From Romanomermis culicivorax (Eukaryota; Nematoda; Enoplea; Mermithida; Mermithidae), in the NCBI GenBank assembly GCA_963922205.1, contig CAWUHX010000151.1, forward strand, positions 698,501 through 762,500: a stretch of DNA of 64,000 bases, given 5' to 3'. The notes below the pieces were generated by a model. That model made no database searches. It was not told where the DNA came from and saw nothing but the letters and a program-made list of their open reading frames with translations. Within the stretch, counting starts at the first letter, position 1, and every line of letters starts with the position of its first letter. Of the stretch, positions 31,571 through 34,555 are shown piece by piece. The translations under genes and the position numbers were made by a program.

Positions 31571-33005
31571 ATCGCCAAACTGTTTCAATCAGCAGGTTGA
31601 AGCATTTTCATTAAGAGACCACTAGAGTATTGCCACGAATAGCGGGAGCCAATCAGGACGCGCCACGTGAGGAAAACACATCACTTTCCAATATGGCGCA
31701 AACAGTTACGACTGGAGCGCCAAACCAAATGAAATCATTTGGAAATTCGCCCAAGGCGAATCTATGCATGATCTCGCGCTGATTTTATTTTTATTTATGT
31801 ACATATCTCCCGCGTGTAGGTACTAATTTTAAATTAAATATGTATTATTTTGTAATATTTATTGCGTTTATATAATTCGTAATTATTTTGTAAATTTTTT
31901 CATATTTATCTCAGACTTTGGGAAAAATTCTTCGGAATTTTAGACCAAAGTGTCAACCCAAAATATTTCTGGCATTTTTCCAAAAAATTTAACTTTCAAA
32001 ATTTTTCATTATTTCTAAAATCAAATAATAGTTGTCCCGCTTATCTGAATTCTAAACTCCCATCAGAAGGAAGAAGTAAAACATTCCCTGAACCATGATA
32101 AAAAGGAAATTAGCAGAACTGCTAGATTAAACTTTTTCAGCATTTTAAATTTTAAAGTTTTTGCGAATTTATTCGAAAAAGAAAAACATTTCGAAACGAA
32201 AAGAAATGGGAAAGGGTGCGCCGAACTGTCAACAAGCTCCGACGCGCGAGTGGTTGCACACAGAGCACCACGTAGAATTTGGTAGAGCCCAGCACCTGCA
32301 AGACAACCGGTTTTTCTTTATCGATGGTAAGTTTCGAACTTATTTTTATCAAATATTCTTGGAAATCGCAGGTAATGCCCATAAGTCACTGGAAGACCAG
32401 CTCAGCGCCCCGAAGGGCAGACGAGGTTAGAACTTAGAGAGAACAAAAAATGGGAGTACTGAGAAGCGGAAGCTCGAAGCCAAGCAGGGAATTTCCAAAC
32501 TTGGGAATATACCTGATACCACCGAGAGCTATATGATTCAAGGGAAACCTAGAACCTTGGGTTCAGCCCGTTTAAAGTTTTTATCATTAAAGTTTATCAA
32601 AAATTATTCAGTTTCAAATCAAATTATATCACTTTTTCGATATCAAAATCATTAAAAATTATCTATCTCGGGGGCTATAAAAAATGTAAATATGGCGCCA
32701 TAAATGGAGCGTAGTTGGTCGCTCAAGCAGCTGGTCAGAGATTGGTGTCCGATCAAGTGGTGGACAATCGGATCAGGTCTACCCTCCCCAACATACAGAG
32801 GTAGCAAGGGTAAGATTTGGTAAGGTGTTAGTTGCCTACCAGCTCAATGTTTGTATATCAGTGGCTCACCTAACAACCTGCACTAAATTTACTTTCTGCG
32901 AAACTTAACCCGCTTGGTGTTGTGGTGCTGGTGTAGAATAGACCCAAGAATACGCTGAAAAAAGGGGAATAAGCACTAAAATTAATAGTATCTTTTAATG
33001 TTTAG
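31571..33005 (+). other. Untranslated spacer between integrase and ORF3
   Basis: Its first about 420 bases are shared with gypsy copy 2, so they belong to the family. The rest has no long frame. It holds a possible short coding exon (32206-32326), a strong donor at 32327 and an acceptor ending at 33005, described separately. Another donor-like AGG-GTAAGAT lies at about 32810. Confidence 0.6.
32206..32326 (+). CDS. Candidate 5' coding exon of ORF3 (spliced to 33006)
   Basis: An ATG at 32206 opens 40 codons (MGKGAPNCQQAPTREWLH...) that end at ATG|GTAAGT, a consensus 5' splice site, leaving one base of a codon. The acceptor TTTTAATGTTTAG|AT at 33005 begins with the two bases needed to complete it, and the exonuclease frame then follows with no stop between. 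The arrangement mirrors the spliced subgenomic RNA used for env in retroviruses and errantiviruses. There is no transcript evidence, and an unspliced start from an ATG inside ORF3 is also possible. Confidence 0.45.
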
Positions 33006-34555
33006 ATTATAACGTCAAAAGGGACGTGAGAATTCACCAACTGGACCAATGGTTCAAAGCCACTTTTGGATACTGGCCGGCTAATCCCAAGGAACCTCGA
33101 ATGGTAGACATCGGGAAAGTCAGCCAGGTACTCCACTTTATCCAAGAAGTATCAATCTTCAGAGGACAACCAGTTTGTGGATTTGATGTCGAAAAAGTCC
33201 ATCAGGATAAAGTTGCCGCCTTGTTCAAGACGAGAGAGGTCGACAATCCGATGGGAAAACAATTTGCCCGCTACGTAAGCTTCGCGCTAACCAATGGTCA
33301 AACGTACGTTATTGATACGACAACCATGATGCTCAAAGAATAGACAAGCCTCCATGACTTCCTCAATTCCGACATGCTGTTTGCCAGATATTCCGTACTC
33401 GAGGACTTGGTGAGTATTTATAACGTATGTGGTTCAGGGCGAGATAATAAGGACAGGGATAAAACTGTGCCCTTAAGGGAACATCTTAGGAAGACCAAAG
33501 ATCGTTACTTTGATTTAGACCGTTTTGCCTTAACCATGGTAGGGGTTAACCTGGAGAAAAAGTGTTTTCAAACAGGTATTTGTCCTGAAACCTTTCGTTT
33601 AAAGGGACTGCTCACAGAATTTTATTTGATAGATGTTGGCCTTTACCAATATGACTTTTCACTAAAGGCGAACTGTGATCGGTTGGCCAAGAAAGGAATA
33701 CTGCCGGAAGAGCTTAGATATGCAGCTCTAGAGGCATACTATTCCTTATTGGTTATGTTTGCTGCGATTCACTATGGCATGGCCGATCAACTGCTAATGC
33801 AAATGCAGATTTTCAATCATGACAAGGTTGATCCCAAACAGATCAATACCATTGCCTTACACTTTTATCAACAGTATTTAATGACTCCAGGCAACGTAAA
33901 CCGAGAAATGGGGCTAGGCACCCCAGTGATGGAAACTGATCAGGTACAGCCTAATATGGTGTACCATATGATGAAATGTGAAGTGTACAACCATTGGGCA
34001 GTACAAATGCAGGGAAATAACACAGGTTATTATACCGCACCTACGGAGTGTAACCCCGTCCGTCCTCAGGGAGTTCAATTGCCAAGTGGTTTTTATCCAC
34101 TGCTCCCGAGAGATAGTAAGCAGATGAAGGATGATAGGTACACTGAAGATAGTGATCCCGACGAAATCCAGGACGTTCAAATACCAGACTGGGTTAATAT
34201 CGCCAAGAATATCCTGGAAAATCTCAAGTCAGGTGGAACCTATTGGGATTTAGAGGGTAAGATTTCCTTGACCCTGTATGAAAACGCTAAGCTATACTGG
34301 CAACAGGCCGGGAAGCCCGATGAAATTCCAGAAGAAGTGTTTTCAGCTAATAACCACTACCCAGTGGGTCTAGAAGGTCATAGGCAGGCCTATAAAACCA
34401 ATTTTTATATGCCAAATTTGGCCAAAATATCTAGCATGTTAGATGAGCGAAACTTTGCGGAGTTAGAGATCATCTGTAAGTTCATGCCATTGGCCTATCA
34501 TTTGGCATGGCCTCACTCAAGAGCGGAGTGTGATTATGAAACCAGCGACTGCTAA
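33006..34555 (+). pseudogene. ORF3 N-terminal part: DEDDy 3'-5' exonuclease-like protein, one in-frame TAG
   Basis: One frame runs from 33006 to the TAA at 34553, interrupted only by TAG at 33341-33343. It reads as an RNase D / WRN / EXD2-type domain. Motif I is CGFDVEKV, with Asp and Glu. A beta-strand segment VSFALTNGQTYVIDTTTM comes next. Motif II, after the TAG, is FLNSDMLFARYSVLEDL, with Asp. A helical region (FDLDRFALTM, FRLKGLLTEF) follows, and motif III is EELRYAALEAYYSLLVMF, where the family has YAA.DA. The Tyr is kept but the last Asp is Glu. A further 220 residues of unknown fold contain an acidic patch (DDRYTEDSDPDE). The family removes 3' nucleotides from RNA or single-stranded DNA with two metal ions. 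The role in this element is not known. Activity is uncertain because of the stop and the D-to-E change. Confidence 0.7.

What the first reader, a model, noticed from the sequence alone, without database searches (positions are those of the whole stretch)
32206..34555. A gypsy retrotransposon carries a DEDDy 3'-5' exonuclease in the env position
Seen: downstream of integrase, a frame has FDVE, LEDL and RYAALEAY in the spacing of RNase D/WRN/EXD2 domains, with helical strings that fit between them. The last catalytic Asp is Glu. Known: gypsy elements normally have nothing or an env here. From memory, DEDDy-type ORF3s were described in LTR and Penelope-like elements of bdelloid rotifers, so the idea has a precedent there. 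Inference: an exonuclease could trim RNA or cDNA 3' ends or counter host small-RNA silencing. Both LTRs and the target duplication enclose it, so it is part of the element rather than a host gene.
Basis: partly seen in the sequence, partly recalled or inferred. Interest (0 to 1): 0.82.

Follow-up and report, generated by a model that had tools for sequence, protein, structure and literature searches.

The report
Retrotransposon carrying its own exonuclease gene
A large, recently active jumping element of a parasitic worm carries a third gene that looks like a nucleic-acid-trimming enzyme in the place where retroviruses keep their envelope gene, an arrangement reported before in bdelloid rotifers.

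Summary
The finding holds, with corrections. The host is the nematode Romanomermis culicivorax. The element is a 14.7-kb Ty3/gypsy-like LTR element, 24237-38912, with a 4-bp target duplication. ORF3 runs from 33006 to about 37488, not to 34555. It is broken here, but 51 of 105 scored places elsewhere have it in frames of at least 1,500 codons. Of 59 integrase-picked places without a listed ORF3, the 20 I checked all carry it. The "last Asp is Glu" belongs to this copy: 18 of 18 other copies fetched by ORF3 and 20 of 20 picked by integrase have Asp. Purifying selection is strong (pN/pS 0.04-0.10 in the exonuclease part; integrase 0.04).

This family's own protein matches nothing in Pfam or the PDB. 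A sister family with a 45%-identical domain matches PF01612 (E=0.0013, below the curated cut-off). A profile alignment puts all four acidic residues and the Tyr in register (0 of 300 shuffles reach the score). A second, distant integrase-bearing lineage carries a clear PF01612 ORF (1e-10) in the same place. ORF3 probably starts by splicing from the first Gag codons. No usable structure model was obtained; activity is untested. Bdelloid DEDDy ORF3s are the precedent.

The parts
24233..24236 (.). target-site duplication ACCC, left
24237..24854 (+). 5' LTR
   Evidence: 95.0% identical to the 3' LTR
24951..24975 (+). first eight Gag codons plus one base: predicted first coding exon of ORF3
   Evidence: inferred; conserved donor-like site after it, phase 1, above 5 bits in 11 of 11 copies
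24976..24981 (+). candidate 5' splice site GTAATA
   Evidence: other phase-1 candidates at 26050, 26077, 26185, 26374
24951..26399 (+). gag, broken in this copy after 482 codons
   Evidence: gag-pol frames of at least 2,299 codons at 48 of 92 integrase places
27654..29957 (+). protease, reverse transcriptase, RNase H
   Evidence: Pfam
30182..31570 (+). integrase
   Evidence: Pfam
33004..33005 (+). putative 3' splice site AG before ORF3
   Evidence: AG kept in 15 of 16 copies; same position and phase in the sister family
33006..37488 (+). ORF3 region, broken in this copy (TAG at 33341-33343, frame change near 34547, later stops)
33185..33193 (+). exonuclease motif I, Asp-x-Glu
33404..33406 (+). 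exonuclease motif II Asp
33719..33733 (+). exonuclease motif III, Tyr-x3-Glu here, Tyr-x3-Asp in the family
38294..38912 (+). 3' LTR
38913..38916 (.). target-site duplication ACCC, right

Best explanation
This is an old, broken copy of a large gypsy-like LTR retrotransposon family of Romanomermis culicivorax. Its third gene codes for a protein of about 1,450-1,500 residues with an N-terminal DEDDy-type 3'-5' exonuclease domain, a conserved middle part, a charged variable linker, a conserved C-terminal part and an RG-rich, probably RNA-binding tail. It is most likely made from a spliced message in which the first Gag codons supply the start. I think it works as an enzyme that trims 3' ends of the element's own RNA or cDNA during replication. 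Shown here: gene content, copies, selection, catalytic residues in register with known DEDDy enzymes. Inferred: splicing, activity, substrate.
For: ORF3 in all 20 checked copies that were picked by integrase; 51 of 105 scored places in frames of at least 1,500 codons; pN/pS 0.04-0.10 in the exonuclease part, like integrase 0.04 and below gag 0.16; sister families at 42-43% overall keep DVE, LED and YxxxD and match PF01612 alone, E 0.0013 and 0.0016; profile alignment with all five residues in register, 0 of 300 shuffles reach the score; a second retroelement lineage with a PF01612 ORF (1.3e-10, 1.7e-13) after an integrase. Spliced start: 11 of 16 copies have no ATG before motif I although codons 2-82 are constrained; acceptor kept in 15 of 16. 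Replication role: the constraint equals that of integrase, not that expected of an arms-race protein (inference).
Against: The family's own protein gives no match in Pfam, NCBIfam, PHROGs or the PDB beyond chance; PF01612 scores of the sisters are below the curated cut-off; without the sisters the profile score rests on motif III (299 of 300 shuffles that keep motif III reach it); no reliable structure. In UniRef fragments motif I is changed in 8 of 32 (Asp) and 7 of 34 (Glu), motif III Asp in 5 of 9, though many may be dead copies. An old relative in the same window, 16232-21807, has no ORF3 match. No RNA evidence for splicing or expression.
Confidence: 0.6

Rival explanations
1. ORF3 is a counter-defence protein: the exonuclease degrades or trims host small RNAs, or their precursors, that silence the element.
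For: The host lacks PRG-1/Piwi and no 5'-triphosphate small RNAs were detected in it, so it must silence elements in another small-RNA way (PMC4323106 passages; the 'must' is inference). DEDD-type nucleases act on small RNAs in animals (recalled; PMC5408684 passages discuss mut-7 and Maelstrom). Separate spliced expression suits an auxiliary protein.
Against: The exonuclease part is as constrained as integrase; counter-defence proteins often evolve fast (general knowledge). No small-RNA data were examined.
Confidence: 0.22
2. ORF3 keeps the DEDDy fold as an RNA- or DNA-binding scaffold without catalysis, like EXD1 or Maelstrom, and serves in particle or RNP assembly through its RG-rich tail.
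For: RG-rich tail with 9 RG pairs; altered catalytic residues in part of the fragments; the precedent of inactive DEDD proteins in piRNA biogenesis (PMC5408684 passages).
Against: All four acidic residues and the Tyr are kept at 45% identity in the sister families, motif II and III Asp in 20 of 20 copies, motif I Asp in 17 of 18.
Confidence: 0.12
3. ORF3 is not an exonuclease at all: an unrelated element protein, for instance an env-like or structural one, in which the motifs are coincidence.
For: Its own family matches no library, and most of the first profile score comes from motif III.
Against: Sister-family PF01612 match, shuffles, no transmembrane-like stretch (highest 19-residue hydropathy 1.5), and a second lineage with an unmistakable PF01612 ORF after an integrase.
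Confidence: 0.06

Closest known systems
DEDDy ORF3 of bdelloid rotifer LTR retrotransposons Juno and Vesta (PMC5408684; abstract and passages read)
   Same: RNase D-like DEDDy ORF after pol in LTR elements; carried by more than one retroelement lineage in one genome; ORF3s expressed from spliced messages (their statement).
   Different: There the motif reads DEED, here D-E-D-D in the family; here ORF3 has about 1,500 codons with further parts; the host is a nematode; here strong constraint among copies, there no significant departure from neutrality.
DEDDy ORFs of bdelloid Athena/Terminon elements (PMC5408684 and PMC6431247, passages read)
   Same: A DEDDy exonuclease as an accessory gene of a large retroelement.
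   Different: Penelope-like, no LTR/integrase architecture.
Cellular DEDDy exonucleases: RNase D, Rrp6, EXD2, WRN, Egalitarian, mut-7 (PF01612; PDB listings)
   Same: Residues aligned with RNase D D28, E30, D85, Y151, D155.
   Different: No significant sequence match of this family to any solved structure; about 15 more residues between motif I and the next strands and an insertion after motif II (alignment).
Retroviral and gypsy env genes
   Same: Position after pol; predicted expression from a spliced message that shares the first gag codons, as recalled for avian leukosis-type env.
   Different: No transmembrane-like stretch and no env family match.

Membership tests
LTR retrotransposon, Ty3/gypsy type | paired LTRs with a target-site duplication | tested here: met
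LTR retrotransposon, Ty3/gypsy type | protease, RT, RNase H, integrase in gypsy order | tested here: met
   Pfam; gag match weak (E 0.019)
DEDDy 3'-5' exonuclease (PF01612) | match to the family profile | tested here: inconclusive
   none for this family; sister family E 0.0013, 19.0 bits, under the 23.6 cut-off
DEDDy 3'-5' exonuclease (PF01612) | D-x-E, D, Y-x3-D in order and in register | tested here: met
   for the family; the window copy has Glu at the last position
DEDDy 3'-5' exonuclease (PF01612) | RNase H-like fold | tested here: inconclusive
   models unreliable, pLDDT 34 and 56
DEDDy 3'-5' exonuclease (PF01612) | 3'-5' exonuclease activity | not testable with these tools
   needs an assay
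Bdelloid DEDDy ORF3 class | DEDDy ORF downstream of pol, inside the element | tested here: met
Bdelloid DEDDy ORF3 class | sequence kinship to the bdelloid ORF3 cluster | tested here: inconclusive
   a profile search of 5.8 billion proteins gave 65 hits, 64 named R. culicivorax and one with its name cut off (only 7,998 candidates scored); no bdelloid sequence was compared directly
Env gene | transmembrane segment | tested here: not met
   highest 19-residue mean hydropathy 1.5

The most novel reading that the evidence does not exclude
DEDDy exonuclease genes are a repeatedly captured, replication-essential third gene of giant LTR elements in animals that lost piRNAs, such as this nematode. Two distant retroelement lineages in one genome carry it in the env position, in this family spliced in through the gag start. 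It gives the element control over RNA or cDNA 3' ends, possibly against small-RNA silencing.
Probability: 0.2. Interest if true: 0.85.

Novelty: new variant of a known kind. Interest (0 to 1): 0.6.

Why it matters
The bdelloid report left open whether a DEDDy ORF3 does anything for the element and saw no significant departure from neutrality (PMC5408684 passages). Here a comparable arrangement occurs in a large family with young copies (LTR identity up to 99.8%), and its codons are constrained about as much as integrase. That makes the function testable, in a nematode reported to lack Piwi. Two lineages in one genome argue for repeated capture or exchange.

Tried and rejected
Host-gene reading: rejected; both LTRs and the duplication enclose ORF3 and the 20 checked copies picked by integrase have it. 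Env reading: rejected for lack of a transmembrane-like stretch and of any family match. Glu as a family trait: rejected. Library matches for the window family: Pfam, NCBIfam, PHROGs and PDB empty or chance. Protein search with the full ORF3: nothing.

Weak results on the way: probability 0.25%, E 0.078, with 10 of 200 column shuffles and 0 of 200 reversed ones at or above it, a home-made RNase D profile gave 2.7 bits, and at least ten of 2,001 shuffled or reversed controls scored higher, 2 of 300 shuffles reach the score, 12 of 300 align D, E, D, and 299 of 300 shuffles that keep motif III reach the score (22 of those also align D, E, D). Reversed and rotated versions (300, not independent) never reached it, though 161 put some acidic residue on all three places. 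Only adding the sister family made the case.

Structures: window piece pLDDT 34; UniRef gene model P0015 pLDDT 56; Foldseek best E 0.34, nothing relevant among the 50 rows shown of 638. A donor for the sister family was looked for by eye only and not settled; only the acceptor position and phase are shared. In one search some ids were read from gapped alignment files; the script library was corrected and later counts use the corrected files.

Full report
WHAT AND WHERE. UniRef hits to the ORF3 piece are from Romanomermis culicivorax (13 of 13), and the assembly holding the window has 359,112,060 bases in 595 contigs. PMC10879605 (passages read) describes a 359-Mb long-read assembly of this mermithid nematode. 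The window carries an LTR element of 14,676 bp, 24237-38912, with LTRs 95.0% alike and a 4-bp target duplication ACCC. Protease, RT, RNase H and integrase match Pfam in gypsy order. Gag and pol are broken in this copy: gag stops after 482 codons, whereas 48 of 92 integrase places lie in frames of at least 2,299 codons, so gag-pol is one frame in many copies.

THE OBSERVATION. The three motifs lie in one frame as described, with a TAG at 33341-33343. The stretch 32206-33005 is spacer. tblastn of an intact copy's ORF3 (P0014, the frame of L009) to the window gives 92% identity over 32942-34546 and 87% over 34549-37488 in another frame. So ORF3 spans about 4.5 kb, and this copy is broken by at least one stop, one frame change and later stops.

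OTHER COPIES. With the 393-residue piece as query, 105 places were scored of 2,986 candidates. All 105 are 92% or more identical to the query, and 51 lie in frames of at least 1,500 codons, mostly 1,519 or 1,529. I fetched 16 of these: 14 have a frame of at least 1,519 codons, L015 and L023 are broken. Because these were found by ORF3, I repeated the search with integrase: 92 places scored of 8,017 candidates. 33 have a listed ORF3 match downstream on the same strand and 59 do not, the ORF3 list being capped. I fetched about 950 bases downstream for the first 20 of the 59 in score order: 20 of 20 carry ORF3 over residues 89-413 of P0014 at most, with Asp in motifs II and III; 19 of 20 have no stop there; motif I was mostly outside the stretch. 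These are close copies (92-99% identical). An older relative in the window itself, 16232-21807 on the minus strand, about 80% identical in DNA over gag-pol, has no ORF3 match; it is degenerate, and whether it lost or never had ORF3 is open. LTR pairs of ten copies are 93.96-99.84% identical, seven of them compared over part of the LTR only, so the family moved recently.

SELECTION. Window piece against five copies: dS 0.50-0.87, dN 0.036-0.043, ratio 0.05-0.07. Among 14 copies with over 1,400 codons, of 16 fetched, pooled pN/pS is 0.06 (exonuclease), 0.05 (middle), 0.13 (linker), 0.05 (C-terminal part), 0.17 (tail). Yardsticks: integrase 0.04 over 16 copies, 4 of them with a stop; gag 0.16 over the 6 of 10 copies with a long frame; window against five copies in integrase 0.09-0.11. 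Shifted frames of ORF3 give 1.9-4.5. The pairwise sums are not independent; the counts are descriptive.

CATALYTIC RESIDUES. In 18 distinct copies fetched by ORF3 the motif I Asp is kept in 17 (L021 has His) and the motif III Asp in 18 (two loci of one copy counted once, the window copy left out). In UniRef fragments, of which many may be dead copies: motif I Asp 24 of 32, Glu 27 of 34, motif II Asp 13 of 13, Tyr 7 of 10, motif III Asp 4 of 9.

THE DOMAIN. The window family matches no Pfam model, no NCBIfam model, no PDB chain except chance, and PHROGs only by chance. PF01612 in the whole genome gave 119 places. Two kinds matter. First, seven places in frames of 1,232-1,398 codons with 17.5-21.1 bits, one of them over the cut-off together with its neighbours. 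I read two, L125 and L126: they are diverged ORF3 copies (42-43% over the matched 360-400 residues, E 2e-91 and 3e-83). L125 lies downstream of a related gag and protease-RT (50% and 47%; L131). Both keep DVE, LED and YAGMD, and hmmscan names PF01612 alone at E up to 10: 0.0013 and 0.0016, 19.0 and 18.7 bits, under the 23.6 cut-off. Second, ORFs of about 600 residues: 78 matches to L127 (395 candidates, 74 scored). L127 and L128 match PF01612 at 1.3e-10 and 1.7e-13. The one copy whose surroundings I read follows a frame with a zinc knuckle, RNase H (2.5e-16) and an integrase 26% identical to ours (E 2e-18; Integrase_H2C2 just under its cut-off). So a second, distant retroelement lineage carries a DEDDy ORF in the same position, shown for one copy; its LTRs were not looked for.

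PROFILE COMPARISON. An alignment of 94 rows (genomic copies plus UniRef fragments) against 16 DEDDy sequences (bacterial loci and PDB chains) gave score 20.88, E 0.025. The low-stringency alignment puts D60, E62, D133, Y238, D242 on RNase D D28, E30, D85, Y151, D155. Of 300 column shuffles 2 reached the score and 2 gave all five in register. Shuffles that keep motif III reach the score in 299 of 300, so it rests on motif III. Adding L125 and L126 raised the score to 26.45 (E 0.0034), not reached by any of 300 shuffles; one of 300 gave all five residues. I take the domain as DEDDy-type at about 0.9 and as active at about 0.7.

STRUCTURE. The window's second piece gave pLDDT 34. P0015, a gene model with motifs I and III but not II, gave 56 and no relevant Foldseek match. 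Neither tests the fold.

HOW ORF3 IS STARTED. In 11 of 16 copies no ATG precedes motif I, yet codons 2-82 show pN/pS 0.10 in frame and 2.6-2.7 out of frame. The AG before ATTATAAC is kept in 15 of 16 copies, and several UniRef gene models enter ORF3 there (for instance P0010, P0022, P0023, P0045); these are predictions. The sister family has TTTTTTAG in the same phase. Among conserved donor-like sites in the first 2.4 kb, the one 25 bases after the Gag ATG is in the matching phase in 11 of 11 copies; other phase-1 candidates exist at 26050, 26077, 26185 and 26374. L021 has lost both this AG and the motif I Asp.

WHAT IT DOES. Env is unlikely (no transmembrane-like stretch). The RG-rich tail (9 RG pairs) suggests RNA binding. 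Constraint equal to integrase favours a replication role, 3'-end trimming of RNA or cDNA, over an arms-race role. The silencing reading stays open: R. culicivorax is reported to lack PRG-1/Piwi, and no 5'-triphosphate small RNAs were detected in it (PMC4323106 passages).

KNOWN BEFORE. Bdelloid Juno and Vesta LTR elements and Athena elements carry RNase D-like DEDDy ORF3s (PMC5408684, abstract and passages; PMC6431247, passages). Searches for further reports: retrotransposon/exonuclease/bdelloid/LTR, 10 papers; DEDDy + retrotransposon, 10 papers; three of retrotransposon/RNase D/ORF3/Gypsy, 56 papers, 15 listed; Romanomermis + retrotransposon + exonuclease, 0 papers; three of exonuclease domain/LTR retrotransposon/nematode/ORF3, 11 papers, 10 listed. 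By title and abstract start none is a nematode case; apart from the four papers named here these were seen as listings only, and the library holds open-licence papers only. A protein profile search found 65 relatives, 64 named R. culicivorax and one with its name cut off. Hence a new variant of a known kind.

Noticed in passing
16232-21807 (minus strand): A second, older and degenerate relative of the element (gag-pol about 80% identical in DNA) with no ORF3 match beside it; an LTR-like match (68-70%) lies at 4137-4814 on the same strand.
   Followed up: partly
C158:182261, 188039, 193817: Three equally scoring fragments of the second lineage's exonuclease ORF lie 5,778 bases apart, suggesting a tandem array.
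   Followed up: no
23769-24281 (minus strand): An ORF with several CCHC zinc-knuckle-like motifs, read by eye, overlaps the left end of the element.
   Followed up: no
L021, C201: This copy has lost both the putative splice-acceptor AG and the motif I Asp, while its ORF3 frame stays open over 1,529 codons.
   Followed up: no
C17:1817048-1817530: A PF01612 match in a 1,232-codon frame passes the cut-off with its neighbours in the frame; possibly a better-conserved ORF3 sister.
   Followed up: no
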